The translations under genes were made by a program, and so were the position numbers. A DNA stretch of 64,000 bases from Lineus longissimus (Eukaryota > Nemertea > Pilidiophora > Heteronemertea > Lineidae), in NCBI RefSeq assembly GCF_910592395.1, contig NC_088319.1, positions 8,496,001 through 8,560,000 on the forward strand, written 5' to 3'. Below, piece by piece: positions 12,009 through 61,875 of this stretch. Within the stretch, counting starts at the first letter, position 1, and each line of letters starts with the position of its first letter. Below the pieces are notes generated by a model, which did not search any database, had not been told where the DNA came from, and saw only the letters and a program-made list of their open reading frames with translations.

Positions 12009-12381
12009 TCTAGAATGCGTAGACGAAATGTCTGTTGGCTCTTCCATCTAGCGGGTATTCTCCCACCTGTTCAGGTCAGGACAGATCAACGTTGAGCAAC
12101 TTGCCTAATCGGTAAAAACGCGGGACGCAGTGCTATTACCGGAACGGTTCAGAACCGGCGATTTTCATCAAAAATCACCCGAAAACTAAAAAAGTAAGCA
12201 ACGGCTGCAAAAATAAAGTACACGTTGTTCGTTAGCAGGTTATGAAACGTAACCTAACCAAATTTCAGGTCGTTCCGTGCGGCAGTTTCGGAGATACGTG
12301 TCGAAAACCACATCCCTCGGGTCCTGGCGATCGGCTCAGTAAAAACAATAGACCATATCCACGGAGTTGTGGATATGGTCT
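12009..12381. mobile_element. 2.2-kb repeat element, copy 1, right part
   Basis: 373 bp, the same length as 25537-25909. It ends in a perfect hairpin: AGACCATATCCAC, six loop bases, GTGGATATGGTCT. The hairpin sits at the very terminus, reminiscent of rolling-circle transposon 3' ends, though no Helitron start motif is clear on the left. Confidence 0.7.
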
Positions 12382-12399
12382 AATAACTGGAGGTCGAAA

Positions 12400-13890
12400 T
12401 TCACAACCAGGAATATGACTTATGAAACCATTTGAAGCGGTCCGCAAAAGCCTTCGTCGTGAGGTGGTGCCGCCTGTCGGCGGTTCCGGGACCATTGCGT
12501 CAAGTTCCATCTCATGCAGGTGCGACATGGAATAATCGAGACAGATTATCAACGGCGGCTGGGTTATTCGGAGTGTTTCCTTCATGATAACAGGAAATCT
12601 GCCATTATCGGAGATGAAGGGAAATTTCCTCTTAACGGCAAGGTGAATACGCAAAATGTAAGGGAGTACGACCAGTTCGGTAAACCTCCTCTTGATTTCA
12701 ATGCAGATAATCGTGCGGATGTTCGGGATTCTTTGCATTGCTGGTGCGGCCTGACACAAGGTTTCTGATATGTGCCGCTGCCATCACAGCATAAGGCCAA
12801 AGGCTCTTTTCAAGTTTAGCCTGGATTAACAAACATCTGGCCATTTCAAAAAGCACCCTCCAGTGTCTCTCTGCCGTGCCATTTTGGTGGGGGGAATAAG
12901 GGGCTGACGTGTCATGCCTTATTCCATTTTTTCTCAGCAGCTCTCCATAGGCACTGGAAGTAAACTCACCACCATTATCAGACCTTAAACATTTAACCCT
13001 TCCAAACGGGGCACAATCTGCCAGAAATTTCTCAGTGGCTGCAAGAGCATTGCTCTTCTCTTTCAGAAAATACACAAATATCAAACCAGAGTAGTCATCA
13101 ACAAAAATCATGGCATATCTAAACCCTTCAGAAGAGATGGGGTCAATGGGACCTGCTAAGTCAGAGTGCACCAGCTGCAATGGCTCTGTTGAGCGAACCC
13201 TGGGAGTCCTGCTTCTATCTTGTGTCATTTTGCCCAATAGGCAAACACGGCAACTTCCAGGAGTGCTCAACTTGCTGGTGTTGACTATCTTCATCCCTTC
13301 GACCACATTCTCCAACTTAACAATATCATGTAAGTTACAGTGTCTTAACACTTCATGCCAATCTAGAAGGCTTCGTGTGACCTTGACCGAATCAAGATCT
13401 GTAGAATTGTCTGGAGGTTCACTGTCCACAACACTCAGGTAGTATAGTCTGCCCGACTTTTTGACATTAAAGTTGCTTCCATCAGGAGTAACTAGTTCAG
13501 CAAAGTCCGGGTTGAAAGTGACAGTAGAGCCCTTTTCCGTCGCCGACTGTACGGAAAAAATGTCTTGCGGATACGATAGGATTAGCAGGGCATTGCGCAG
13601 TGCTTTCCTTCCTTATTCTCGATCATTACTTTCGCATCTCCACGTTTTAGCGCAACATTATTGAATTTTTCTCCGTTGGCAAGCTCGATAAAATGCCTCG
13701 ATGGCGAGAAACGATCATCAAAGCGAATGAATTTCGATTCGTCATTCAAGATATGGGCCGTTGCCCCACAATCAACAAGTAGACTGTTCCGTGGTTTTGC
13801 GGCGTCATCGAAACCTACTCGGAACACAAACGTGTGCACGGATTCTGTCGCATCTGCACATTTCACCGAAAGGGTACTCTCAACTCCCTG
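12400..13890 (-). pseudogene. Copia protease-integrase segment (inverted)
   Basis: Reading leftward from 13890: a retroviral-type aspartic protease with its active-site motif changed to LLVDCGATAH, then a pre-integrase domain with LLDWHEVLRH and CRVCLLGKM, then the integrase core with HSDLAGP, FVDDYS and SDNGGEF and the downstream PYSPHQNGTAER. The frame is broken near 13430-13580 and again after HIRNLV near 12730; a degraded linker with a PEPPTGG-R-rich motif reaches about 12400. It is on the opposite strand to the reverse transcriptase half at 13886-15198, so this half has been inverted. gag and the 5' LTR are missing: the 2.2-kb repeat ends directly to the left. Confidence 0.85.
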
Positions 13891-15198
13891 GGATTGATTA
13901 TTATGAAACATTCTCCCCCACAGCACGCATGACATCTATCAGAATGCTAATGCAGTTGGCTGCACAGTATGATTTGAAGATACATCAAATGGATGTCAAA
14001 ACTGCCTATTTAAACGCACCTATAGATTGTGAAATCTATGTTGAACAGCCTGAAGGTTTTGCCTTAAGAGGGCCAGGCAGGTGAAAAATTGGTCTATAGA
14101 CTGAAGAAGTCTCTTTATGGGCTCAAACAGAGCGGTAGGAATTGGAACGACATGTTGCATACTCATTTGATTGAACAAGGTTTCAAGCAGTCACTTGCTG
14201 ACAACTGTGTGTATTCCAAAATTTCGGAACAAGAGATGACCATAGCTATAGTGTGGGTGAATGATATCATCATCGCTTCAAATCTTGACTCAAAACTAAA
14301 TGATGTGAAAGAGGCACTGAGCAAAAGGTTCAGAATGAAAGATCTTGGGAAAATTTCCTATTTTCTAGGGATTGAATTTTCACAGACTGATAGTGGTACC
14401 ATTGAAATGAATCAGTCAAGGTATATTGAGAAAATTCTCTCAAGGTTTGGTATGACATACTCTAAGCCTAGGGCTACTCCATGTGAAGTTGGTAAGACAA
14501 ATGTTGTGAACTCCGAGCTTGTAGATGCCAAAAATTACAGAGAAATCGTAGGTAGTCTCATCTATGTGATGACGGCCACCAGGCCTGACTTATGTTTTGT
14601 TGTCACAAAACTGTCACAGCACATGGCTAATCCAACTGTTGAAGATTTGACAATGGTGAAGCATGTTCTTAGGTATTTGAAGGGCACTTTAAACCAAGGG
14701 TTGGTGTACAGGAAAGCTGACGGTTTGTCACTTGTAGGTTTTTGTGATGCTGATTGGGGAAGTTCCAGCGAGGACCGACGTAGCATTTCTGGCTATGGGT
14801 TTCAACTTTCTTCTGAGGGGCCACTGGTCTCATGGAAAAGCAAGAAGCAACAAACCGTTGCTTTGTCAACTTGTGAAGCGGAATACATGGCACTCGCTAC
14901 TGCTACCCAAGAAGCAAAATTTCTGTTGCAATTGTACCCGAGTATGACTGGGAAGAAACTTGAACAAGTTTGTATGCATTATGACAATCGGGGAGCGATC
15001 GCTTTAGCTCAAAACCCCGTTCATCACCAGAGAACGAAACATGTGGACATCAAGTACCATTTTGTACGGTCTGAAGTCAAAAATGGGTTGCTACAACTTG
15101 TCTATATTCCATCAGAAGACAATGTTGCTGACATGTTCACAAAGCCAGTTTCAAGGTATAAGTTACAGAAGTTTGTCAAGGCTATCTCAGGATTCTAA
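13886..15198 (+). pseudogene. Copia reverse transcriptase-RNase H
   Basis: Starts abruptly with GIDYYETFSPTARMTS, the usual beginning of Copia reverse transcriptase, and continues through QMDVKTAYLNAPIDCEIYVEQP. A frameshift near 14070-14085 separates this from the long frame 14089-15198, which holds SLYGLKQSGRNWN, YFLGIEF, LIYVMTATRPDL and an RNase H domain with FCDADWG, STCEAEYMA and the terminal HVDIKYHF-VADMFTKP. The polymerase active site reads WVNDII where WVDDII is expected, so the first catalytic aspartate is asparagine. The element is therefore dead on two counts. It is followed by a polypurine tract and LTR. Confidence 0.92.
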
Positions 15199-32008: not shown

Positions 32009-32379
32009 ATAATACTAGGGTGTTCAGGTCACGTGACTTTTCACGTCCCGTCGGCGAATTTTAGCGTCATGCACGAAAAATGACTCAAAAAATTTCACCT
32101 AATTGTAGAAGATCGATTAATTTCGGTGTTTTATTGTTGATGTATGAAGAAACCAAGAAGACCCAAGGTAACCAGGTATCTAATCTTTCATTCTTTCAAA
32201 TTTCAACGAAATTCATTCACTATTTGCTGAGAAATTACAAATTACGCACAACTTTCGCCGCGGCTTCGATCTTTGCGACCGCCATAATGATATGCAAATA
32301 AGCGCGGCATGGGGGCGTGGCTACCTGTCACTTGCTACTCAAAACTTTGGCGCCTTTTCCGCTAATGGGTACGTGACCT

Positions 32380-32390
32380 TTATAAATTAT
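32380..32390 (+). promoter_or_regulatory. TATA-like box
   Basis: TTTATAAATT about 600 bases upstream of the first ATG of the 1105-residue gene, inside the transposon leader. A splice donor-like AAGGTAACC at about 32165 lies before it and an acceptor (ctcttcag, ends 32988) after it, so a non-coding first exon is plausible. Confidence 0.25.
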
Positions 32391-33012
32391 TTCAACGGAA
32401 ATGACCTCTGCTTGTCAAACTTTTGAGGTTGGCAGAAACTTGTGCCGATTTTGCTCAATATTTCCCGATTTTAGACGTTTCAAAGTTTTGGTAGCTCGTA
32501 TAATCATATGTTCGTCCTGCATGAAACTTCATAGAAGTGATAATAAGAAGAATTAAGTGGTCATTATTGATATCGTGAACAGTTCTTTAAAAAAAAGTTT
32601 GACAGTTCCCGCGGAAAAAACAATTTTAAAATCCAAATTAGTTCCAACCCTGCCGCGTGGAGCGCACGGCCATTTTTCTCAACATCCGGGTACTTCGTCA
32701 ATTAAATTAAGCTTCTCTGGTCAGCTGTTTCCAATGTTTTGATATCGTTTGGGAAGGTTTCTGTAAGGTTTTGAAGGTTTTTCAATCTTTTTTTAGCTAG
32801 TGACAGTTACCCAAGTCCCTTCTGGACACTTCTTACGTTTGACTGTTGTGAATATTTAGCTTTTGTAGCGAAAATTCAGTGAAAAAATTGTAATTGTATT
32901 TTTTCTTCACTTCCTCCTTGTCCTATTCATATTGTATTGAAATATCTGTTATCTGTTGCTTTTCTCATCTGTCATCTCCTCTCTTCAGCTACTCTTCTCT
33001 CTGATATTGGTC

Positions 33013-36000
33013 ATGGCTACCTATGGTGAAGCATATAAGATTTGGGAGCGTTGGAACTCCTCTGGTGACAGGCAAAGACCAAATGGTTATATCACACTTG
33101 TGGCGCTCTTTACTGAGGCGTATCCTCAATTTAAATCGTACTGCACCGATGACTCCAAATCAAGAACTCTTTCTAGTAAAATACAGAAAGTAGAATTTGA
33201 CTTTCGCATGAAAATAGTCAAAAACAAGAAGGACAAGGATGAGTTTTTTGCGAGATTGTTTGCCGTCCCTGTCGCCAAAGGCATTGAACCTACGGCTTCT
33301 GTAAGTAGGCCTGCAGGTACCGATGCAAACGGTGACTGCATTCGTAATGTAACCGACAGAATGCTATTCAGGTTAGGGGTTTGAAAAGAAAATTGAAAGA
33401 AATGGAACAAGATCAATCTATGAAAGAATTAGAAGTCATCCAACTTGAAGCTGCTCGTGATCAGGCGCTAGCAGTTAAGCTTAAGTCCCAAGCGGATAGG
33501 GAGAACTTGTCTTTGAAGTTCAATGCATTGTCAGTCCATCACACTGAAGTGAGAGCGCAAAATTTTGAAATTCTGACTGAAAATCAAACCCTCCTATCCT
33601 TGAAATACCAGAGTGCCAAAAACAAAGAATCAAAGGATAAGTATTTGTCAGAAAAAAATCTTACCTTAAAAAAGCTGTCCCGCCGCATTGTTTCTCTTGA
33701 TAATTGTAAAAGCCAATTAGAACAACAGAAGCAAATTATTGACACACTGCGCCGTCAAGTTGCAGAGAAGGAAAGTTTTCTGATGGAGAAGGAATTGGTC
33801 CTTGGGCAATCCAAGTCCAAGATTGTTGAGCATGAATCCGAAATTTCCAAGCTGCGCTCAAGAATATTCAAGCTTACCAGAGAATTGAAGGTCGCCTGTC
33901 CTTCTGAAGTTCAGGTAAGAGACAATGAAGTTATTTTAAAACTCATTGATGAAAAGAAAGACTTGGAGATAGCCAATAGAGAGCTACATCGCGCTGTGGC
34001 TCTACTAGAAGACCAAGAACAACTGGTTGAAGTCTTTGAAAATGGCAAATTCAAAGATGCCCTCCGTGAATGTATTGTCATCTTGGTAACAGATTGCAAG
34101 GTGAGTCTTCGCAATGTCTCCAAGTCGATCAATAGCGCTTTAAAACTTGCCGGTAAAAAGCTTGGCCGCGAACCATCAATTGGTGTCATGCAGCAAATCC
34201 TTGGTGAAGCAAAAGTTGTCATCAACCAGCAACTTGAGGACGAGTTAGCTGAGTCTTCTTGCATTGACCCATTGCAAAATATTGGTCACACTTTGCATGG
34301 TGATGGTACAACTAAATTCTCAAAGAAGTATCAAAACTTCCAGGCTACCACTTTGGAAGGTAAGACATTATCTCTCGGCCTGCGTGAACAAGCAACTGGT
34401 TCTGCCCAAGACACATTGGATAACTTCATATCTATAGTGTCCGACATTTGCTTACAAGTGAAAAGATCTGAGCCAGAGTGTTTGAAGAGAGTAGCAGAGA
34501 TCATGACTTCTTTTAAGAACACCATGTCCGATCAAGGTGCCACCAATCCGTTGTTTAATGCGAAATTTGCTACTATCCGTGAAGAGTTGTTACCAAGTGT
34601 CATTGACAACTGGGATTCACTACCGAGGGAAAGCAAAGATGAAGTCATCAAGTTGGGCAACTTCTACTGCAAAATGCACATGCTGGTGAACTTTGCAGGT
34701 GAGTGTGATAAGACCCTGCATGTTTTTGAAGAGCTGGCCTATGACAAAATGCCCGACTTGGGAGCTGCAATTCAAACTGCTGAATCTGGTCCAGTGCGCT
34801 CTATTAGAACCTCGGTGAAATTGCTCCACCCTCGCGGCTCCGATGAAGCTGGGATAGCTAGCTTTTTTCAACCGTTCTTGACTGTAAATGGCAGAAAGAG
34901 CCACATCTCTGCGTTTGAAGGCAACCGGTTTAACATCGTGTATGAGCATGCTGCCGCTCTGTATCATCATCGCAATGATATATCCGAGTTCTTCGTTGTT
35001 TATGGTAAGGGAAACAGACTTGTTAATTCTGTCCAAGAAGACCTGGACAAAATGCCCAATATTGCTGGTATGCGTGTGCTGGACATACTGTTCAAGCTTG
35101 TGACCCAACCATTCGAAGGCATGTTAAAGAAGGGTGGCAACATTCTTTCCACTAATCCGTACCTGGAGCAGCTCCAGAAGTGCCTGGAAAGATTCTGTGA
35201 AGATGCATCTCCTCTTTTGCAACAGTTCGTGATTTTCGATGATATTCCACCGATAAAAGATGAGGTGTACTGGAGCCTTTTCGAAAACTCGAGTGTTCAA
35301 ATGGACTTGTTGACACAGCAAGCGTTAGAGTTAATGTGCTCATCTCTCTTACTTATATTGGAGAGACAAGCAAAAAATCATCTGCCAGGTGGTAAGTACA
35401 GTGATGGCTCTCTCACAGTTGCTCTCCGCAAGCAAGCTGCATCAGTACCAAAGACAAATATCGTGTCAGAGAGGGACTTCGCTGTCCTTGATTATCTAAT
35501 CCGCCTAAAACCCGCCGCAAATACTGACCTGTATGAGACAATGATCCTTTGGACCGCCAATAAAACATCAGAGTGGCTTGGTAGTAAAATTGATGGTGAA
35601 AAGGTACAAATCTGGGATGAGGCAAGAAAGCAGCTTCCTGATATTCGGCGGAAATATAGGGAGAGGAAAGAGCAGATTCGGAGGGAAAAGATTAAAATCT
35701 TGATGAGTAGGAAAGAGAAGAAGGATGCTGGTGAGATGAAGGCACAGGATGATAGCATCAAACTAACGTATGACCTCGCAAATTATGGAATGGTTTGGAC
35801 GACGAAAGAGCAGGTAGACCAAATGGTAGATGAATTCACAGAAACATCTGAAAAAAAAGCAAAAGATGCGCTGATTGCTCAGTTGAAGTACCGTAAAAAG
35901 GTTATAAAATGTAAGGGTGAGGCAAAGTTGTTTTACCAGACTCGGAATTCCAAACCCTTGACTGTAAACGAGTTAAAAAAGAACTTATTAGAAGTTCTAG

Positions 36001-36401
36001 AATTGAATGCAAATTTTGAGTATGTGGAGCCCGATACTCCTTATACCATAACGAGCCCCGCCGCACGGGAAGAAACAATGGCCGTACAGAAGTCGAAGCT
36101 TCATGCCAGATTAGCCGAACCACGCCACAAAAGAATAACCGAACTCAATAAAGAAAAGCTGCCGTTGTATCTGCAAGATCCTACCAAGCTTGAGGGCAAG
36201 AAGATCAGCCATAAAACTCGTGATTCACCTGGAGAACCATTCGAGTGGTTCTCTGCCACTGTAGTTCAAGTTGAGGAGGAAAGTGACACCAATGTGATAA
36301 AAACTGAGTATCTGGTCAAGTACGACTTGGATCCTGATGACACATATGTTTTCCCTCTTCTTCAAGAATTAAAGAATGGATCTCTAATTATCTATGAATG
36401 A
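33013..36401 (+). CDS. Candidate transposase, 1105 aa, two exons
   Basis: Exon 1 (33013-33300) starts at the first ATG after a splice acceptor at 32987-32988. A 71-bp intron (33301-33371, GTAAGT...TTCAG, phase 0) joins it in frame to 33372-36401. Without splicing, exon 1 would stop at 33384. Order of parts: a basic N-terminal domain with WERWNSSGDRQRPNG (about residues 10-85), possibly DNA binding; a coiled coil of about 200 residues; a central domain with LHGDGTTKF (D407), MSDQGATN (D483) and CKMHMLVNF (C529, H532); LPGGKYSDGSL; a lysine-rich stretch; and a Tudor/chromo-like C-terminus with EWFSATVVQVEEE and EYLVKYDLDPDD. The HGDGT and SDxGATN blocks followed by CxxxH resemble the first two acidic residues and zinc pair of RNase H-fold transposases such as hAT. 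That fold is my inference. I recall similar multi-copy uncharacterised proteins in marine invertebrates. Confidence 0.75.
33301..33371 (+). other. 71-bp intron
   Basis: Donor GTAAGTAGG, acceptor CTATTCAG. Removing it joins two frames at phase 0 and bypasses a TGA at 33382. It is the strongest internal evidence for the two-exon model. Confidence 0.8.
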
Positions 36402-36619
36402 CACTGTCTCTCGCGCTGCGCCGTCTGGTCATTTGTTCTGTCATATCAGTTCCTGTGTGTACTGCATCTATCCTTCCACTTCCAGCAATCCGAATTTGCC
36501 ACTTGTTTAGCGAAGTTTCATCCTGTATCTATCAGTTCATTACTCCTTCGAATCCACTAGTGTTTTCATTGTCTCAGTGTCAGTATTTCAATCGTTGTGG
36601 TTTCAATCTATCCATGTGT

Positions 36620-36900
36620 TAGGCCTGATGTTGATCCTAAAGAGGAAATTAACCTCAAGGCGTCTTGCCTCACAGGGGATATTTGATCACTTTCTGTTTC
36701 TCTGGATTTATTCTGTGTTGGCCTGATGTTGATCCTGATTTTTCAGGCGTCTTGCCTCATGGATTAGATTCTCCGTCCATTTCGTGTCCGCTTTTTGCCG
36801 CTCTGGATTTATTCTGTCTTACTGTTGGCCTGATGTTGATCCTGATTTTTCAGGCGTCTTGCCTCATGGATTAGATTCTCCGTCCGTTTTTTGGTTGTCT
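36620..36900 (+). repeat. ~110-bp tandem repeat between the two transposon genes
   Basis: Units beginning GCCTGATGTTGATCCTGATT at about 36722 and 36827, with a diverged unit at 36626, each followed by CAGGCGTCTTGCCTCA and, in two of them, GATTAGATTCTCCGTCC. No ORF of note. It may contain the polyadenylation region of the first gene or a promoter for the second. Confidence 0.75.
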
Positions 36901-37051
36901 TTTTCCATTCTGCCTGATTTTACAGTTTAGGCCAGATGATGATCCCACTGAAAGTATATAATCTGTATTGTAATTTAAATTATGAAAATATCGAAATTTA
37001 CTTTTAAGTTTCATTTTTGCAGGAGAAAGAATCATCAGCTGTTAAGAAGCC

Positions 37052-37939
37052 ATGGATTGTAAGTACAAGGTAGAGGTATCGGGCATTTGTTCAGCCAATT
37101 TGTACGGCAACTGTAACCGTGACTGTTGCAGATTCACCCACATAAAATCTGGGCGAATCTTCGACAGTCACTGTCACCTTGACATAATGAAAGAGAAAGG
37201 TTTGAATATGGAGAGGCTGCCACTCCCCCCAAGGTTTGGTGGCTGTTTTGCAAATTTTTGCCATCCGTGGCGTTGGGATCAAATTGCTGGGCTCCTGGCG
37301 CCAAAAAATTGCTGGGGGTCTGTTGGAATACATCCGAAATCGGCTGATCAGTTCGATTTGGATGTATTCCAACAGATGAAGGAGATTATTGTGAGCAATG
37401 TAAAAGTCATTGCAGTTGGGGAGGCAGGGCTCGACAAGAGCTGGCACTCACATGCTTCTAACCCATGTCAAGGGTATGTGTTTGCCAAACAGTGTGAACT
37501 GGCCTGTCACCTCAACCTGCCTCTTATTGTTCACTGCAGGAATGCTGATGAGGAATGCTTGGCGCTAATGAAGCATCATTTGCCGATAGACCACCCAGTG
37601 CATTTGCACTGCTTCACTGGTGGCTTGGTCCTGGCAGAGAAATACCTGGCTCATTTTCAGAAGTTGCACATTGGTGTAACTGGTTTGGTAACCCTCATTG
37701 GGGACCGGCGCAGTAATAATGTTGCAGATGTAGCCAAAAACATCCCGCTGAATAGGCTACTTCTTGAGACGGATGCACCGTACCATGTGCCTCATCCATC
37801 ACAGGCTAAGTATTGTCATCCTGGCATGGTGCTGCATACAGCTCAAGAAGTAGCACGTCTGCGCAATATTTCTGTTGTCCGGGTACTGGATGCAAATGCA
37901 CTCGGTGTCCGTCAGGTATACAATGTGCAACTTCTGTAA
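37052..37939 (+). CDS. TatD-family metal-dependent nuclease with CCCH zinc finger, 295 aa
   Basis: A splice acceptor (tttttgcag, ends about 37021) precedes the ATG. Residues 13-30 form a CCCH zinc finger (C13-x7-C21-x4-C26-x3-H30). The rest is a full TatD amidohydrolase barrel with all expected metal ligands: DSHCHLD (H40, H42), VGEAGLD (E124), LIVHCR (H161), HCFTG (H186) and LLETDAPYH (D241). TatD proteins are 3'-5' DNA exonucleases or deoxyribonucleases using divalent metal. It lies 650 bp downstream of the 1105-residue gene, same strand, inside the same TIR-bounded element. It resembles the TATDN2-like branch of animal TatD. The role in transposition (trimming ends, processing excision gaps) is a guess. 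No frame damage. Confidence 0.88.
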   Translation: MDCKYKVEVSGICSANLYGNCNRDCCRFTHIKSGRIFDSHCHLDIMKEKGLNMERLPLPPRFGGCFANFCHPWRWDQIAGLLAPKNCWGSVGIHPKSADQFDLDVFQQMKEIIVSNVKVIAVGEAGLDKSWHSHASNPCQGYVFAKQCELACHLNLPLIVHCRNADEECLALMKHHLPIDHPVHLHCFTGGLVLAEKYLAHFQKLHIGVTGLVTLIGDRRSNNVADVAKNIPLNRLLLETDAPYHVPHPSQAKYCHPGMVLHTAQEVARLRNISVVRVLDANALGVRQVYNVQLL

Positions 37940-38176
37940 TAACAGGTTATCTCTGTCCGCCAACATTCCTCATCTGCATCCCTGTGAGATCTTCCTTATC
38001 CACCTTACATTTGTATGCCCTGTTTGTCCATCTGTCTGTTACTTTGTTGTTCCGATTGGGGAGTGGTCCAGTCTAATTTCCAATCCTACTTGTCACATTA
38101 CCAAAAATTGTAACCTCTACCTTTGTACCATTTCAGTCAACATCAGCTCCATCCATGGAAACAACATCCCAGAATT

Positions 38177-38466
38177 CCGTCCAATTTATACCCTAGCAGT
38201 AGCAATATTTTTATTTTCAAATTTTACATAAATGTCCGTCCAACTGATTGTGTTATTTTGATTTAATTTGTCAATAATTGAACTCAGTCCAATGTTCAGC
38301 TTTTTGTGTCAATAGATCCGTCCGATGATTTTGTCTTGCAACATTATGCAACTTTAGTTTTATACAAATTTCATTCAGCTCAAATCCGTCCAAAAGTTTG
38401 TGCTAATAGTAATATATCCGTCCAGTTATAACTATGTCACTTTCATTGCCCTCAAATCCGTCCAAC
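38177..38466 (+). repeat. Array of CCGTCCAA motifs
   Basis: CCGTCCA or CCGTCCG at 38177, 38236, 38318, 38386, 38418 and 38458, a half-site AGTCCAA near 38286, spaced 32-82 bases, often preceded by AAAT. No coding sequence lies here. In a subterminal non-coding arm such arrays are commonly transposase-binding sites. Related CTCCGTCC occurs in the tandem repeat at 36770 and 36875. Confidence 0.6.
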
Positions 38467-38890
38467 TACTTCATCTTTTATGATTTTGATAATATTAATT
38501 TATTTTCAGTCACATTTTTTGATTGATAAAACTGAGCAACTATTTGATAAAATGTAGGAATTAAAGTTAGGCCACATTCTTGATTTGGCATGTAGAGCAA
38601 ATGACCTATCCAACCAGTTTTTTACTGTTGTTACTGTTACATTGATGCTTTTTCTTTCTTTTTTCATGAGTCATCATCATATATTACCCCTTTGGCTTTG
38701 TTGACTGTAATTTGTTCTGCTTCCTGGGCGAAATATCTATGAAATCTTGGATGTTTTCTGGTTCATCTATATATAACAAGTAGCAATCACAGTCATGGTA
38801 GGCCTATAGTAAATTAGAGTTCTGTCATCCTAGCAGGCTGGGTCACTTGCTCTGTCATGTCTGTAGTTTTCTTTTTCCAGCATTTATTGA

Positions 38891-40419
38891 AATGAAACGG
38901 CCAGGGGCCATTGTGCTCACCGTAAGTATTTTTAGTAGACAGTTACAGAAAGTGCTACAGTATGACAATGGTGAATATATTTTTAACTTTGACCTCAGTG
39001 ACCCTGACAGGTAGGTCAAATAACAAACCAGGGTGATATGTGATGTAGACACATCCACCTGACCATAACAATTTCATCACTCGTTACACTACAGCAATCG
39101 GCAAAAAACGATTTCCAAGATGGCCGCCTAATTCAATCTTTGGCACCAAATGAATAAAAAAATGAAGAAAATGTAAGATAGAACTCAGAAAAGAAAAAAG
39201 GAAAAGATGAAAAATAAAAATATTTTTGGCTGTCCTTGACCGGGGTTTGAACTCACGACCTTTTGATTGCCACAATACGCGGAAAAACTCACAAAACATG
39301 CAATTTCGGCCATATTTGAATTCCGATCTGGCTGAAACTTGGCATACAAATAGTGGCTTCTTAGATGCATCATTACACAAAATTAAAACTCTTTACATTG
39401 AACAACGACAAAACGTACCAAGAACGGTAAAGTTTTCAACTTTGACCTCTGTGAACTTGAAAGGTGGGTCAAATCAAAAACCTGTAAGATATGTGATGTA
39501 TCCTTGCTGGGAGTACCTTCCATGAAACTTTTATCAAAAACAAATCAGTAATAAGCGAGAAATCACACTTTTTGAGTTTTGAGTTTGGGCCCCCTGGTGG
39601 CCAAGTCAATAATCAGAACGAACCAAAATTCAGTGTAAAAGGTCAACTGACCTAGGGGGTCATTTGTTCAAAGTTTCAAGTTCATTACTGTTGCGGTTGA
39701 GAAACGTGCCATAGTTACACTCAAACGGCCAATTTACGCCATTTGACCTCTGCGACCTTAAAAAGTACGTCAAATCCGAAAAATCGTGCAACATCTGAGG
39801 TAACCTTGCTAGGGGTCCCTGCCATAAAAATTTCATCAAAAACAATTTGCTAATAAACAGGCTATTGCACTTCTTACTTTTTCAGTTTTGGCCCCCTGGT
39901 GGCAAAGTCAAGAATCAGATCAGGCTGAAATTCAGCACCAGAGGTTATCTGATATAGGGGGTTATATGTACCAAGTTTCAAGTTCATAGCTTTGGTGGTT
40001 GAGAAACGTGCCATAGTTACACTCAAACGGCCAATTCACGCCATTTGACCTCTGCGACCTTGAAAAGTAGATCAAATTAAAAACCCGTAAGATATATGAT
40101 GTATCCTTGCTATGAGTACCTACCACAAAAGTTTTATCGAAAACAAGTCACTAATAAGCGAGATATCACACTTTTTAGATATCCACATTTGGCCCCCTGG
40201 TGGCCAAGTAGAGAATCAGATCGGACAGAAATTTAGTGTCACGGGTCATCTGACCTAGGGGGTCATGTGTACAAAGTTTTAAGTTCATAGGCCTAGCGGT
40301 TAAAAAACGTGCCACTGTTTTTGAACTAGGATACGACGGACAACGACGACGACGACGACGACGACGACGGACGACGGACACTGCGGTGTTGTATAGACTC
40401 CCCTACGGTGAGCCAAAAA
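38891..40419 (+). mobile_element. HINE-like element inside the TatD transposon
   Basis: 5' AATGAAACGGCCAGGGGCCA then GCTCACCGTAA; 3' GACTCCCCTACGGTGAGCC then AAAAA, same CGTA subfamily as 23521-26449. Two to three ~305-bp internal units with TTTGACCTCTGYGACCTT (39440, 39747, 40045) and gccccctggtgg. An (ACG)n run at 40342-40370. It is younger than its host transposon. Confidence 0.65.
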
Positions 40420-41517
40420 GTGATGGCTAGCTGCACTGACGAGCACCTGAAATGGGCGAAACATGGCATAGTCAAATCAAGATGTGCTTATAAATTTTAA
40501 ACATAGTTAAACCATGTGCTCTTTTCTCTTTCAGATCTGACATGTGGCATTCGGGCTCGTATGACAGAAACAATTCACATTACGGAAACAAAAGCATTTA
40601 CAGATTTTTATCGATATTATCTGTACCTTGAAAAAGAACATTTCAGAAACACAAGTTATATCTTTTAGTTCTTCTGTTGTTAGTTATAGGCTTGGTTCAT
40701 ATCTTTAGCTGCCTAGATGGACTGGATTCCCTGCTCCTCCCCGAAAATTTTGATATGTCACAAGCCTGGTTGGAATTTTTAAGTTGCTCAGCCCATTTGA
40801 ATTTGTAAAAAAGACGGTAGCCATCTTGGAAAAATTGTCAGCCATCTTGGATTTTGGTGGCCATTTTAGATTTTGAGATTTAGGGTATTATACCACATCT
40901 CCATCTTGCATGTCGTGGACAATTCGCTACAAATTCCCATGAATAGGGGATTTTTATCAAAATCGGCTTAATTTGGCTGCATATTTTGGCGGCCATCTTG
41001 GATTTTGGCAGCCATCTTGGATTTTAGGATGATGGTCCATCATCACACTACTCAATCCTGGAAATTTCATTAAAAAAATCCTATTAATAAAGGATTTATG
41101 ATGGAGTTTTCTGGCACTGGCTGTTCATTCTGGCGTCCATCTTGGATTTAGGCGGCCATTTTGGATTAAGGCGGCCATTTTGGATTGTCTGATGAAGGAT
41201 ATCACAACACGACTCCATCCAGAAAATTTCATCAAAAAATTCCTAAAAATAAGGTAGTTATGTGAGAATGTCCTTGTTCTGGCTGTTGATGGCAGCCATG
41301 TTGGATGCCGTTTGACCTTTGACCCCCAATGCATTTTCCTTTTATGCTGCTTGGTCAAAAAGATGCAAAGTACCGACCTTCAAATGGCTATAACTTTTGA
41401 TTGCATAGGAATTTTTTCATTCTGTAAAAGCCATTGACCTTAGAATTGCTGCTGCTTTCAATTTTGCCTTTACCATATCTTTTAAGCTTAATTTTGACCT
41501 GAACACCCTAATAATAC

Positions 41518-49482: not shown

Positions 49483-49863
49483 TGGATCCTGCAGATACAG
49501 CATCATTGCCCGCTACTGTAAGGGCAAGCCTGAACTTTGCACTTTTTCAGGCTTTTCGCCCTGAGGGCAATGTTAAAATGGATGGCGTCTATGTCTGCGG
49601 TTTCGGCGATTTTAACAGAATCCGCTTTAAACATCGATATGGAAAAATGGTATCTCACAGCAAATGGTATGCAGATGGAAACATGTACATTTTAAACAGA
49701 TCGTTGCCCATGGACTCTGATAGGTTTGGCCCATTCACAATGGACCAGATATGGTTCATGCCACGAATCCCAGCAATGAGTCCTTTGCAATGTATGGATC
49801 ATCTCAATAAAAACTTCCACGGCATGGCGTCATTGTCCCCTGGGCATTGTCACGTGTTGACTT
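49483..49863 (+). CDS. Unidentified ORF, ~126 aa
   Basis: Follows a plausible splice acceptor (tcatttcag, ends about 49480) and starts ATGGATCCTGCAGATACAG. It reads FRPEGNVKMDGVYVCGFGDF, FKHRYGKMVSHSKWYADGN and IWFMPRIPAMSPLQC without a stop until 49863. Composition is protein-like. Its last codons overlap the broken end of the Polinton ATPase on the other strand (junction about 49842), so the final residues come from a different source. Family not recognised. Confidence 0.35.
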
Positions 49864-50917
49864 GAACAGTATAATATATTGTGCATTCAGGCTAATATTC
49901 CTACAATATTTACCCTGGGTGTATAGATTTTGTAAGATGAATATCACAGACACATTTTTATGGTGTGCTCCTTTAGTAAATAGTTTTAACAACATCTTGT
50001 CATCCTTTGCTTCATCCATTAGGTTGTCAATGACAATCAAGTTTCGCCTTGTGGGGTCTAGCTTATCATGGAGGTCGGCTGGTAACCCCTCTACAAACTC
50101 TATACCCAAGGGGCGCCTTTCATCATAAAGCGTCTGATATTCTCCGTAACACCAGATCAAGTGCTCTGGAACAGGATCAAACATATTTTCCTCTATAAAG
50201 CCCGTTACACACGAGGGATTTCTCACCAACTTAGTTGGTTTTAAAATTAAGAACAGGTGTACAGGTGACTGGAAGTTGAGAGTCGTTCACCCACTCACAC
50301 GAAAGACATAATCCCAGCAATATTTCGGTCCTGCACTATATTTAGGCCAAAACCTTGGTCAAGGCTGAGTGCAAATATCTATTATTTCTGGCGGGGAAAT
50401 CTTAGATCTGCTGATGATTTTGTTGTGTACAATGAGAGGAAGAAAAAGAAGATTTTATATATTATTATTGTAAAAGGTATCAGTGAAAAGAGGAAAAGGA
50501 GAAATTGATGGGATAATAGGAGGTTTTGGGCAAATCGTGGATCATGACAAGGTAAAGCCTTGGCGCCTATGGCGCCTATAAAGATAAAGAGTCAAAATAT
50601 GGCCCAACTATGTTGTTGACTGAATCACACGGGGAAATTTCTCCCCCACACTCCTTATATAAACAAAAAAATCCTTATATAAACAAAAGATGTCGTGGAG
50701 AAATAGAACAAGTCGGTAGTGCAACCAGCAACTCCAACCAATCGGGCAAAGTATCAGTTACCTGGTCTGGATTCCTGTTATGAATTAAAATTCCAACTAA
50801 GTTGGTGAGAAGTCCCTCGTGTGTAACGGGCTTAAGCCGTCTTGTTAATGTTGTCTTGCCAGAAAAGCTTGCCCCCACTACGAGGTAGGTGGCCGGATGG
50901 GATAATCTCAGATGCAT
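49843..50917 (-). pseudogene. Polinton packaging ATPase, split by a MITE and truncated
   Basis: The 5' piece (50837-50917) starts MHLRLSHPATYLVVG and carries the Walker A motif GASFSGKTT. The 3' piece (49843-50195) carries IWCYGEYQTLY, the Walker B-like LIVIDNLMDE, and ILQNLYTQGK with SLNAQYIILFK. These are hallmarks of the FtsK/HerA-type genome-packaging ATPase of Polintons and adintoviruses. A 635-bp MITE (50199-50833) separates them exactly at its TAA duplication. The C-terminal ~70 residues are missing after RDNAQ, where unrelated sequence begins at about 49842. Non-functional. Confidence 0.88.
50199..50833. mobile_element. Harbinger-type MITE, 635 bp, in the ATPase gene
   Basis: Ends AGCCCGTTACACACGAGGGA and complement ACGGGCT, flanked by TAA (50196-50198, 50834-50836). 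The terminal repeat extends about 40 bp, including CACCAACTTAGTTGG. Same family style as 2388-2816. Confidence 0.88.
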
Positions 50918-58575: not shown

Positions 58576-59313
58576 CTACTCTGCATCTTCTTGTTTATAT
58601 GGTGTCATAAGCCAGCTTCGGCACGGATATCCGCTATCACCAAGGATGAACCCATCAATAGCACCACTCTCCATGAGATCCCAAATCTGAGTTGTCCTCA
58701 ATATTCTGCTATCGTGTGCACCTCCAGGCCATCTTGCCACGATTTTGATGAATTTCCCCTTGTGATCACAAATGACTTGCACATTAATTGAATGATGTCC
58801 TTTTCTGTTGATATAGTCGATGTCGTTCTCATGTGGAGAACACATCCAAACATGAGTTCTGTCCACGCAGCCTATCACTTCTGGAAAGTGTACACGTCTC
58901 ATCCTTTAGAATCCATCCTTGATTTGGGCTATATTTCGTGCATCAGGGAATTTCACATAGTCACCTATCTTCTCTGCGAGAGAATCCGTCACACGATGAA
59001 TAGCACGCCAAGCAGTTTGCGGAGATACTTGTAGAGGATCCCCAACAACATATTGGAAGGTGCCAGTTGCATAATATTGAAGTGCTATCAACACCTGCTG
59101 AGATGGGAGTAGGGCGAAGTTTCTCCTTGTAGGATGTTCAATATCCGGGGCAACAATGTCCGTTATCAACATTATCCCCTCCCTCGAGAATCGATACCTC
59201 TTAACAAGTTCTGCATCACCAAAAATGTCCAAAGGGTTTCGACGATCACGGAAAACGCGTTCTCTTCGCATTGCTCTACGCAATTCAGCAAGTTCCAGGA
59301 TCCGTCTCGCCAT
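58576..59313 (-). pseudogene. HARBI1-like DDE transposase, nonsense-mutated and truncated
   Basis: Reads from ATG 59311-59313 through RYRFSREGIMLITDIVAPDI, LIALQYYATGTFQ, then a TAA at about 58909, then VIGCVDRTHVW (first D), ARWPGGAHDSRIL (second D) and FILGDSGYP..LMTPY. It breaks off after KQEDAE; the usual C-terminal ~100 residues with the catalytic Glu (NVVERTFG-type motif) are absent. So the copy could not cut DNA by itself. Confidence 0.88.
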
Positions 59314-60030: not shown

Positions 60031-60807
60031 TTATTTTTGCATAAAATGGAGTACAACCACTGTTTTACCGTGTCTGAATTGCACCAATTCGCCGTTATCA
60101 CGCCTTATATCTATTTGTATATTATCAAATTGTTTATGTACAACAGGGAGATAGTAAGGGTTTTTGTAAATGTTAACAGTATTCCCAACATACTTCTTAC
60201 TAAAATCTACAACTCGAATCAGGGGCACCATGCAATCACCGACCACCTGCGATGTTACAATGTCAGAATACACATAAAGGGTATGAAAACCAACATGGAT
60301 ATCTGCTCTATATTCACCATTCTGATCACATTCAAATACCAGACCGGCTTTGAAACCCATACAATTAGCTAAATCCCCCTTAAGATTTATTCTAAGACTC
60401 AGATGATTATTAATTAGTTTCACATAACCGGTTACTCTATCGTACTCAAAATAAAGAGCCCTATGAACTTTTTCAACATATCTTGAAAAATCAGAATTTT
60501 CCGCGCAATAACTAACAATAGCTTTATTCACAGCTTTTACCACATATGCAATATTTTTGTACTTTCCCACTGTAATCTGCCCAGCCACTGCAATTTCCTT
60601 CCCTGTATGATAGAGTTTTATCTCAAACCCATTATTGTCTGAAATATTGTCAATATCTCCCACAAAATGAATTTCACTGAGCACCACACTCCAACTTCCT
60701 TGCAAATCAATTGTCTTAGCTAGATTGATTTTGTAAGAGTTCTGTGAATTCTTCGGGAAAAGGTGATGGGCTGCGTTGCCATTTCCGCCCAGTCGCGGAT
60801 TCAGCAT
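60031..60807 (-). CDS. Polinton penton/minor capsid protein
   Basis: An uninterrupted frame of 258 codons. NSYKINLAKTIDLQGSWSVV followed by LSEIHF matches the N-terminal jelly-roll start of Polinton penton-like proteins, and RDNGELVQFRHGKTVVVLHF matches their ending. The first six codons (MLNPRL) belong to the end of the upstream membrane-protein gene read in the same frame, so the true start is uncertain. It is the only virion gene here without damage. It would form the capsid vertex. Confidence 0.8.
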   Translation of the reverse strand: MLNPRLGGNGNAAHHLFPKNSQNSYKINLAKTIDLQGSWSVVLSEIHFVGDIDNISDNNGFEIKLYHTGKEIAVAGQITVGKYKNIAYVVKAVNKAIVSYCAENSDFSRYVEKVHRALYFEYDRVTGYVKLINNHLSLRINLKGDLANCMGFKAGLVFECDQNGEYRADIHVGFHTLYVYSDIVTSQVVGDCMVPLIRVVDFSKKYVGNTVNIYKNPYYLPVVHKQFDNIQIDIRRDNGELVQFRHGKTVVVLHFMQK

Positions 60808-60846
60808 GAGATATCCAATCCCGCTACTTAGGAGGGTAATCTAGAG

Positions 60847-60987
60847 TTAGGGCTGATCGGTCTTCAGCATTAAATTTATGATGGATGCAATAATCACAGT
60901 ATAAACAATGAGGATTTGACAAAAATAAACAATCTCTTCCTTGGGCACTTTACTACCAAAGACTGTCCAACTAGCTGCCGTTGCCAT
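60847..60987 (-). CDS. Polinton small single-pass membrane protein (damaged end)
   Basis: ATG at 60985-60987, overlapping the integrase end by about 17 bases. It reads FGSKVPKEEIVYFCQILIVY followed by a hydrophobic segment TVIIASIINL. The frame stops at TAA 60847, but sequence beyond (with a further TAG) reads ITLLSSGIGYLMLNPRL, the usual ending LLSSxxGYLLPNPxL of this conserved Polinton protein. So the gene probably extended to about 60785 and has lost its end to two stops. Confidence 0.7.
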   Translation of the reverse strand: MATAASWTVFGSKVPKEEIVYFCQILIVYTVIIASIINLMLKTDQP

Positions 60988-61875
60988 TTTTATACAGTTT
61001 TTTGACCCAGCTATCGAACTTTGATTGATAACCGTGCCACCTCACAAGATATTCTTTGTCAACGCCCCTGTCCCTTGTTTTTATAACTTTTTCAACCTCC
61101 CATAGCACAGGCCTGTAAAATCCCTGTAAAATTCCACCCTCGTCATCTTTTAAATTGTATATTGGCAACCCCAATCGTTTTCTACGTCTAGAAATAGTGA
61201 ATATTTCATCAGTATAACTAGGGTAGAACCCCTTGTCGAACAAATGTTTGGCTTTACTCACAAACACATTTTCGCAAATGTTAAACTTGTACTTTATATT
61301 AATGGTATTGGATTTTTGTTGCTGCCTTATGATTTCTGCATTGTCGTATGTTACATCGGCAGGGGCCATCTGAATACTTCGATGTTTGGAATGGTTATAA
61401 CTCGACACAACCTTTAGAAGTATCTTGAGGTCATGGAGGTAATGGCGTGTGTTGTTCACAGAAAAATATTTGTATAATTTAGACCTCAATGTGCATATCA
61501 ATGCGTGCTTTGATGTCCTGATTGTTGGCAAAGAAGTATTGAATCTCCTCCTTGCATAAAAATGATTTGAATGTTTTATTTTTTAACTCGGTCCCATTAT
61601 CTGTGAATATACAATCAGGTCTACGCTCCTTCAACACTTTTTTGAATGCATTGATCACTGTGATTGGCTGTTTGTTTCGAATCGGCAGAGCCCAACAATA
61701 ACGGGAAAACAAGCAAATTACAACCAGCAGGTATCTTACACCTTTGTTGTACTTTGTTTGACATGTCAGCCAAATCCATTTGGAATTGCTCATCTATCTC
61801 GATTACTTCTACCATGCGTCTTGGAAAGTGTTTCCTAGCCTGCTTATGTATATAGCAGCCTTCTCCACGGGCCAT
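60971..61875 (-). pseudogene. Polinton retroviral-type integrase with chromodomain
   Basis: Three overlapping frames. Upstream: RKHFPRRMVEVIEIDEQF and MDLADMS (first catalytic Asp). Middle: NKGVRYLLVVICLFSRYCWA and CIFTDNGTEL (second Asp). Downstream: YKYFSVNNTRHYL, HRSIQMAPADV, a basic region, and a chromodomain with EYLVRWHGY ending at 60971. Frameshifts lie near 61750 and 61510; the second removes the segment where the catalytic Glu should be. The N-terminal zinc-binding part is lost at about 61865. Polinton integrases insert the element with 6-bp duplications; the matching terminal repeat is not in the window. Confidence 0.9.

What the first reader, a model, noticed from the sequence alone, without database searches (positions are those of the whole stretch)
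32016..41510. A TIR-bounded transposon carrying a coiled-coil candidate transposase and a TatD nuclease
Seen: exact 16-bp inverted ends, an exact 7-bp target duplication (ATAATAC), and two intact same-strand genes inside. Known: TatD proteins are metal-dependent DNA exonucleases; no transposon superfamily I know of encodes one. Inference: this is an undescribed DNA transposon class whose cargo nuclease may process excised ends or gaps. It could also explain why TATDN2-like genes are multi-copy in some marine invertebrates.
Basis: partly seen in the sequence, partly recalled or inferred. Interest (0 to 1): 0.92.

Follow-up and report, generated by a model that had tools for sequence, protein, structure and literature searches.

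The report
Jumping gene carrying a TatD nuclease
This stretch is a genuine cut-and-paste transposon in the genome of an unnamed organism that carries, besides its transposase, a gene for a TatD-type DNA/RNA-trimming enzyme, a partner gene we did not find described for any DNA transposon.

Summary
Window 32016-41510 has exact 16-bp inverted ends, a 7-bp duplication, and two genes: a predicted spliced 1105-aa transposase and a 295-aa TatD nuclease. In the host genome all six close transposase copies found, plus two degenerate arrays, are followed by TatD sequence, complete only in the window copy. Three copies have both ends and different 7-bp duplications. The exact end occurs 47 times (0.18 expected). 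Of 18 end pairs read, 13 have exact 7-bp duplications, 3 one mismatch, 2 none. One insertion has two paralogous empty sites; the window copy has none. Against a divergent dead subfamily, both genes show dN/dS near 0.3; close copies are uninformative.

The transposase has an invariant D-D-CxxH-E signature in five families of this genome; TatD was seen with only one, so it is family-level cargo, not the mark of a class. Signature, ends and NTNNNAN target resemble hAT, but the 7-bp duplication and missing hAT, P and Dada features argue against plain membership. A Gypsy-like retroelement here also has a TatD ORF, so TatD was probably recruited twice. TatD's role is inferred. Relatives in named species could not be searched; the fold model was useless.

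The parts
32009..32015 (.). left target-site duplication ATAATAC
   Evidence: other pairs
32016..32031 (+). left terminal inverted repeat TAGGGTGTTCAGGTCA
33013..33300 (+). transposase exon 1 (96 aa), predicted
   Evidence: donor GTAAGT kept in 4 of 5 copies
33301..33371 (+). 71-bp predicted intron GT..AG
   Evidence: no transcript
33372..36401 (+). transposase exon 2: region that looks coiled-coil (by eye), then D407 - D483 - C529xxH532 - E796, and C-terminal region; stop included
   Evidence: no Pfam family at its cut-off
36622..36946 (+). three exact and one 82% copy of a 17-bp motif (GGCCTGATGTTGATCCT) about 100 bp apart between the two genes
   Evidence: families D6, D8
37008..37022 (+). 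predicted splice acceptor upstream of TatD; an in-frame TAA lies between it and the ATG, so TatD reads as a separate product
   Evidence: prediction
37052..37939 (+). TatD nuclease gene, 295 aa, CCCH-type finger pattern at residues 13-30, TatD domain 37-290 with HxH, E, H, H, D motifs
38893..40414 (.). nested repeat inserted later into this copy (not part of the element proper)
   Evidence: absent at the same point in copies B and C
41495..41510 (-). right terminal inverted repeat
41511..41517 (.). right target-site duplication ATAATAC

Best explanation
A cut-and-paste DNA transposon with two genes. Shown: defined 16-bp ends, 7-bp target duplications, several copies at different places, a deletion derivative and nonautonomous elements with the same ends, and a TatD gene that travels with the transposase and carries a signal of past purifying selection. 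Well supported: the 1105-aa protein is the transposase, a D-D-CxxH-E enzyme that works like a hAT transposase (short ends starting TAGGG, long spacer between second D and E, target preference NTNNNAN compared with hAT's NTNNNNAN). Inferred: it excises at the 16-bp ends and joins them across a 7-bp stagger; TatD, of the 3'-5' single-strand DNA/RNA exonuclease type, is made as a separate protein and aids the element, most likely by trimming single-stranded or hairpin-derived ends at donor or target, less likely by removing RNA made against or on the element.
For: Six of 6 close transposase copies found, and both degenerate arrays on C3, are followed by TatD sequence. Three copies with both exact ends have different 7-bp duplications. 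Of 18 end pairs, 13 exact and 3 one-mismatch 7-bp duplications, 2 none. Two paralogous empty sites for one nonautonomous insertion. L035 is a 2546-bp internal deletion of the same family (96-99% identical pieces) with its own duplication. dN/dS of 0.23-0.32 for TatD and 0.20-0.47 for transposase pieces against the divergent C3 arrays; excess of synonymous change p = 0.011 and 0.007 for two TatD comparisons, 0.002 and 0.015 for two transposase pieces. TatD metal-binding motifs present. D, D, CxxH, E invariant in five families.
Against: No transposition or expression data. The role of TatD is not shown; sister families spread without it. TatD is complete only in the window copy: B starts at residue 32 after a deletion, and the other four copies are truncated or interrupted. 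Close copies do not show selection: TatD omega 1.47 (B, 3 changes), 2.80 (C, 6 changes), 0.76 (D, 2 changes); transposase 0.65-1.01 on the longer alignments. The arrays that give omega near 0.3 are dead, overlapping repeats, so those tests are not independent. No empty site exists for the window copy in this assembly. In three of six close copies only the left end was found in the DNA fetched. The fold was not confirmed: the single-sequence model has pLDDT 38.5.
Confidence: 0.8

Rival explanations
1. TatD is a passenger: a host TatD gene captured once by the transposon and carried along without helping it move.
For: Only one of five examined families shows TatD; a multi-exon host TatD gene at C7:17.2448-17.2472 Mb is its closest other relative seen (37-51% over three exon matches) and the element's version is intronless, as after capture; five of six close copies have a damaged TatD; close copies show no selection on it.
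Against: Transposase and TatD show similar omega near 0.3 against the divergent subfamily; a captured useless gene should drift. TatD sequence is present in all six close copies found and both arrays.
Confidence: 0.25
2. It is simply an unlisted hAT family with a 7-bp instead of 8-bp duplication; hAT entries annotated '7-bp TSD' are apparently held in Repbase.
For: CxxH signature, D2-E spacing 309-338, ends TAGGG, target NTNNNAN; a Repbase paper gives a command to extract hAT families annotated '7-bp TSD' (PMC4455052, passages).
Against: hAT dimerisation domain PF05699 is found at 36 places in this genome, none overlapping the 49 transposase places (compared by eye); no Pfam transposase match at E <= 1 in the window frames or in five pieces of three other families; the exact duplications are 7 bp, none extends to 8.
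Confidence: 0.3
3. It is a member of the Dada superfamily, which also makes 6-7 bp duplications and sometimes encodes an exonuclease.
For: 6-7 bp duplications and C/DxxH; some Dada transposases contain a DnaQ-like exonuclease (PMC3706591).
Against: Dada families with definable ends have no terminal inverted repeats and sit in small RNA genes, with CCCC and CCHC fingers. Here there are exact 16-bp repeats, no Rfam gene in the window, and no such fingers seen by eye in the protein.
Confidence: 0.03
4. The ends and duplication are a coincidence around two host genes.
For: Within the window alone, 8 of 100 shuffles give two matches at up to 3 mismatches; genome-wide, counts at up to 2 mismatches do not exceed the control.
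Against: 47 exact ends genome-wide, 16 exact facing pairs, 13 of 18 pairs with exact 7-bp duplications.
Confidence: 0.005

Closest known systems
hAT superfamily (Hermes, Ac)
   Same: C/DxxH motif between second D and E; long spacer before E (Hermes spacing recalled); short ends; target T at position 2 and A at second-last position (Hermes nTnnnnAn, PMC10368747, passage)
   Different: 7-bp not 8-bp duplication (hAT 8 bp: PMC3942097, passage); no PF05699 dimerisation domain; element 7.4-9.5 kb with a second gene
P superfamily (P, 1360, Galileo)
   Same: C/DxxH group; Galileo papers contain the term 7-bp TSD (PMC4168063, PMC2775673, search listing only); coiled coil near the N-terminus (recalled)
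   Different: P RNase H domain PF21787 found at 20 places, none at this family; no THAP match at Pfam E <= 1
Dada superfamily
   Same: 6-7 bp duplications, C/DxxH, exonuclease in two lineages (PMC3706591, parts 1-3 of 4 read)
   Different: Dada: no terminal inverted repeats, small-RNA-gene targets, CCCC and CCHC fingers, exonuclease fused inside the transposase
ISL2EU transposons
   Different: unrelated nuclease, transposase with HTH and THAP domains, ends usually starting GG
Cellular TATDN2-like / TatD nucleases
   Same: full TatD domain with metal-binding motifs; a multi-exon host gene is 37-51% identical; the TATDN2 label is recalled
   Different: single-exon gene inside transposon ends, with N-terminal CCCH finger pattern

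Membership tests
TIR cut-and-paste DNA transposon | terminal inverted repeats | tested here: met
TIR cut-and-paste DNA transposon | fixed-length target-site duplication at independent insertions | tested here: met
   13 of 18 pairs exact 7 bp, 3 with one mismatch, 2 none
TIR cut-and-paste DNA transposon | empty site with one copy of the duplication | tested here: met
   two paralogous empty sites (78% and 75%) for one nonautonomous insertion; none for the window copy; other insertions not searched
D-D-C/DxxH-E transposase group | three acids plus C/DxxH between second D and E | tested here: met
   invariant in 5 families
D-D-C/DxxH-E transposase group | RNase H fold | tested here: inconclusive
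   single-sequence model pLDDT 38.5; a four-sequence profile finds no solved relative
hAT | 8-bp target duplication | tested here: not met
   7 bp; criterion PMC3942097, but Repbase seems to hold 7-bp hAT entries
hAT | hAT dimerisation domain PF05699 | tested here: not met
   36 places, none overlapping the 49 transposase places
hAT | target preference T second and A second-last | tested here: met
   T at 2 in 10 of 13, A at 6 in 10 of 13 oriented exact duplications (each p = 0.0006)
P superfamily | P-type RNase H domain (PF21787) | tested here: not met
   20 places, none overlapping
Dada | no terminal inverted repeats | tested here: not met
   exact 16-bp repeats; criterion from PMC3706591
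Dada | insertion in small RNA genes | tested here: not met
   no Rfam match in the window; other copies not scanned
Dada | CCCC and CCHC zinc fingers | tested here: not met
   none seen by eye in the 1105-aa protein
KDZ / Zisupton | KDZ transposase domain (PF18758, accession recalled) | tested here: inconclusive
   no such Pfam match at E <= 1; the genome search did not complete
Kolobok | TTAA target duplication (recalled) | tested here: not met
   duplications differ and are 7 bp
MuDR | longer duplication and MULE domain (recalled) | tested here: not met
   7 bp; no MULE match in Pfam at E <= 1
TatD nuclease | TatD_DNase domain and metal-binding HxH, E, H, H, D (residues recalled) | tested here: met
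   Pfam 4.5e-52; alignment to solved TatD proteins from residue 85 on, motifs
TatD nuclease | nuclease activity | not testable with these tools
   needs enzyme assay

The most novel reading that the evidence does not exclude
A superfamily-level lineage of 6-7 bp-duplication D-D-CxxH-E transposons, one branch of which recruited a TatD nuclease as a second transposition gene, in a genome where a Gypsy-like retroelement recruited TatD independently, suggesting that TatD nucleases repeatedly help mobile DNA.
Probability: 0.35. Interest if true: 0.78.

Novelty: new variant of a known kind. Interest (0 to 1): 0.62.

Why it matters
Accessory nucleases are known in a few transposon groups (DnaQ in two Dada lineages, PMC3706591; YqaJ in ISL2EU, PMC4482050), and the second of these papers says the role of such extra ORFs is unknown (passage). 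A compact two-gene element with defined ends and target offers a direct test of whether a transposon brings its own end-trimming enzyme. It also warns that TatD genes counted as host genes may belong to mobile elements; a giant squid Hox-cluster figure legend lists a TATDN2 ORF among non-Hox genes (PMC6962438, passage).

Tried and rejected
Viral and prokaryotic contig scans gave no relatives. Solved-structure search with the exon-2 frame and with a four-family profile gave nothing relevant. PHROGs gave nothing. Empty site for the window copy: none. Element boundaries for the C4 family: none found. The C20 copy of the C16 family shows no duplication by eye. Paper searches for TatD or TATDN2 with transposon, transposable element, retrotransposon or Repbase (20 of 53, 6 of 6, 1 of 1, 14 of 14 papers listed) and for 7-bp or new superfamilies (20 of 239, 7 of 7, 3 of 3, 20 of 27 listed) showed no TatD-bearing transposon in the lists; the library holds only open-licence papers, and the first two searches failed. 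Searches served ISL2EU and hAT. The KDZ domain search and a search for Gypsy-type integrase near further TatD ORFs did not complete.

Considered and rejected: coincidence, Dada membership, an unrelated pair of host genes.
Full report
OBSERVATION. The window holds an element at 32016-41510 with exact 16-bp inverted ends and ATAATAC on both sides. Inside are a transposase read as two exons (33013-33300, 33372-36401; 1105 aa) and a TatD gene (37052-37939). About 1.5 kb of it (38893-40414) is a later nested repeat, because copies B and C run straight across that point.

THE HOST GENOME. The window lies in G000:C12:8496001-8560000, an unnamed 391-Mb genome in 30 contigs. A search with the transposase exon-2 frame gave 49 matches (46 of 161 candidates scored, so a lower bound). 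Eighteen belong to close copies and arrays (56-100% identity) and 31 are distant (23-32%). Close copies: A, the window; B, C5:16354962-16362552; C, C12:6064342-6071718; D, C12 from 6125428; two on C3 at 16.774-16.787 Mb, which share one flank sequence and look like a segmental duplication; and degenerate arrays at C3:16.79 and C3:16.83 Mb. The exon-2 frame is full length without stops in A and B only; the others are interrupted.

TatD TRAVELS WITH THE TRANSPOSASE. A search with TatD gave 31 matches (36 of 36 candidates scored). Pieces of 94-100% identity (and two of 88-90% on C3) lie downstream of the transposase in all six close copies, and 42-88% fragments lie in the two arrays. Only the window copy has the whole gene: B starts at residue 32, C covers 1-98, D 1-159 in two pieces, the C3 copies 1-228 and 1-168 (one with further 3' pieces). 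None of the 31 distant transposase places has a listed TatD match close by; the nearest are about 35 and 45 kb away. Copies A, B and C each have both exact ends and different 7-bp duplications: ATAATAC, CTTATAC, TTGTAAG. For D and the two C3 copies only the left end was found in the DNA fetched.

ENDS AND TARGETS. The exact 16-mer occurs 47 times against 0.18 expected; with up to 2 mismatches the counts equal the reversed-pattern control, so only exact matches carry weight. They form 16 facing exact pairs; two more pair with a one-mismatch end; 13 exact ends are unpaired, three of them in close copies. Ten of the 18 pairs are 2.04-2.19 kb apart: nonautonomous elements whose ends are about 70-84% like the window's. 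I read 15 of the 18 pairs (12 whole, 3 by their ends) and the other three are A, B and C. Of the 18, 13 have exact 7-bp duplications, 3 have one mismatch (L033, L040, C13:12.77 Mb) and 2 have none (L029, L039). L035 is a 2546-bp internal deletion of the window family itself (96-99% identical pieces). In element orientation the 13 exact duplications have T at position 2 in 10 and A at position 6 in 10 (p = 0.0006 each against a T or A frequency of 0.295). That NTNNNAN is the 7-bp counterpart of Hermes' nTnnnnAn (PMC10368747, passage).

EMPTY SITES. Joining the flanks of L036 with one duplication copy gives 93 bp that match two other places without the element, at 78% and 75%. The joined sequence is open in a frame that I recognise from memory as BEL/Pao retroelement coding (no Pfam match for the 30-residue peptide). 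The window copy has unique flanks and no empty site. Flanks of the other insertions were not searched.

TRANSPOSASE. The window frames have no Pfam match near a cut-off, and five pieces from three other families have no match at a cut-off (the best is a zipper-like Asd-4 domain, 21.4 of 29.1 bits, E = 0.00028); no solved structure matches. Aligned with four other families of this genome, 42 positions are invariant, among them D407, D483, C529, H532 and E796; D-D spacing is 76-81 and D2-E 309-338. [quoted passage not shown] The single-sequence fold model was useless (pLDDT 38.5). Other families: C6:9126008-9131959 and C20:9318589-9324540, 5952 bp, 99.85% identical, ends TAGGGAGTTCAAGGCC, 7-bp duplications ATTTTAG and CTATAAT; C16 near 10.47 Mb, 99.9% identical to a second copy on C20, ends TAGCAACC, duplication GTTAATA in one of the two (ends read by eye); C5:16199684-16207622, ends TATGGGCGG, 6-bp GTTAAC, sitting in a common 300-bp repeat; the C4 family gave no ends. 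TatD was not listed near any of them. So this is a lineage with 6-7 bp duplications, two of whose families were recently active.

MEMBERSHIP. hAT: 8-bp duplication not met; PF05699 found at 36 places, none overlapping the 49 (compared by eye). P: PF21787 at 20 places, none overlapping. Dada: inverted repeats, target and fingers do not fit. KDZ could not be searched in the genome. So it works like a hAT-type transposase, but I do not file it as hAT. A Repbase paper mentions hAT entries annotated '7-bp TSD' (PMC4455052, passages), so curators might.

TatD. The domain is complete and the HxH, E, H, H and D motifs line up with solved TatD enzymes or are present by motif, with a CCCH-type finger pattern at residues 13-30. 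An in-frame TAA between a predicted acceptor and the ATG makes it a separate product. Selection: against the divergent C3 arrays TatD omega is 0.23-0.32 at dS about 0.3, and transposase pieces 0.20-0.47; synonymous excess p = 0.011 and 0.007 for two TatD comparisons, 0.002 and 0.015 for two transposase pieces. These arrays are dead, overlapping repeats, so comparisons are not independent. Against the two C3 copies TatD gives 0.34 (p = 0.076) and 0.25 (p = 0.012). Against B, C and D there are too few changes (TatD 1.47, 2.80, 0.76), and the transposase itself gives 0.65-1.01 on the longer close-copy alignments. The closest other TatD seen in the genome is a multi-exon gene at C7:17.2448-17.2472 Mb, 37-51% over three exon matches plus a weak first exon, which fits capture of a host TATDN2-like gene (label recalled).

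SECOND RECRUITMENT. Two TatD ORFs (L052, L053), 28-34% identical to the window's, lie downstream of a Gypsy-type integrase C-terminus (Pfam Integrase_p58_C, E = 1.2e-7 over its cut-off and 1.7e-5 just under it). L054 and L055 hold further copies of that ORF at 91-95% (no integrase match in the 3 kb fetched), and L058 looks like another. L056, L059 and L060 are more distant single-ORF TatD proteins. Terminal repeats of the retroelement were not looked at. I described these only.

MECHANISM. Shown: mobile element, ends, duplication, linkage, a signal of past selection. Inferred: hAT-like excision and 7-bp staggered joining; TatD as helper. Most likely role: trimming of single-stranded or hairpin-derived ends (my estimate 0.35 given a function); others: RNA or R-loop removal, defence against host silencing. 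Passenger status remains possible (0.25).

NOVELTY. Transposons with accessory nucleases are known (DnaQ in two Dada lineages, PMC3706591; YqaJ in ISL2EU, PMC4482050). I found no report of TatD in one in the listings (open-licence papers only; lists cut at 20; Repbase and Dfam not searched). Verdict: new variant of a known kind.

Noticed in passing
L052:1994-3301 and L053:1475-2782: A TatD ORF with a zinc-finger-like N-terminus lies just downstream of a Gypsy-type integrase C-terminus in two places of the genome; L054 and L055 hold further copies of the ORF.
   Followed up: partly
L056, L059, L060: More distant single-ORF TatD proteins (368-498 aa frames), 25-37% identical to each other, to the retroelement type and to the window's; whether they sit in retroelements was not tested.
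   Followed up: partly
L025/L026 (C6:9126008-9131959) and C20:9318589-9324540: A second family of the same transposase lineage with two copies 99.85% identical on different contigs and clean 7-bp duplications, so recently active.
   Followed up: yes
C3:16.789 and 16.829-16.831 Mb (L014, L051): Arrays of shortened transposase-TatD fragments, as if a deletion derivative had become a tandem repeat.
   Followed up: partly
window 38893-40414: Nested repeat with three roughly 300-bp tandem units ('GCCCCCTGGTGG'), with relatives in most of the host regions compared and around the C5:16.20 Mb element.
   Followed up: partly
window 36622-36946: Four 17-bp motifs about 100 bp apart between transposase and TatD; possible regulatory repeats.
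   Followed up: no
window 12265-15198, 58906-59313, 49804-50229, 60031-61531: ORFs that look like Copia, Harbinger and Polinton/adintovirus-type genes (recognised by eye, not tested).
   Followed up: no
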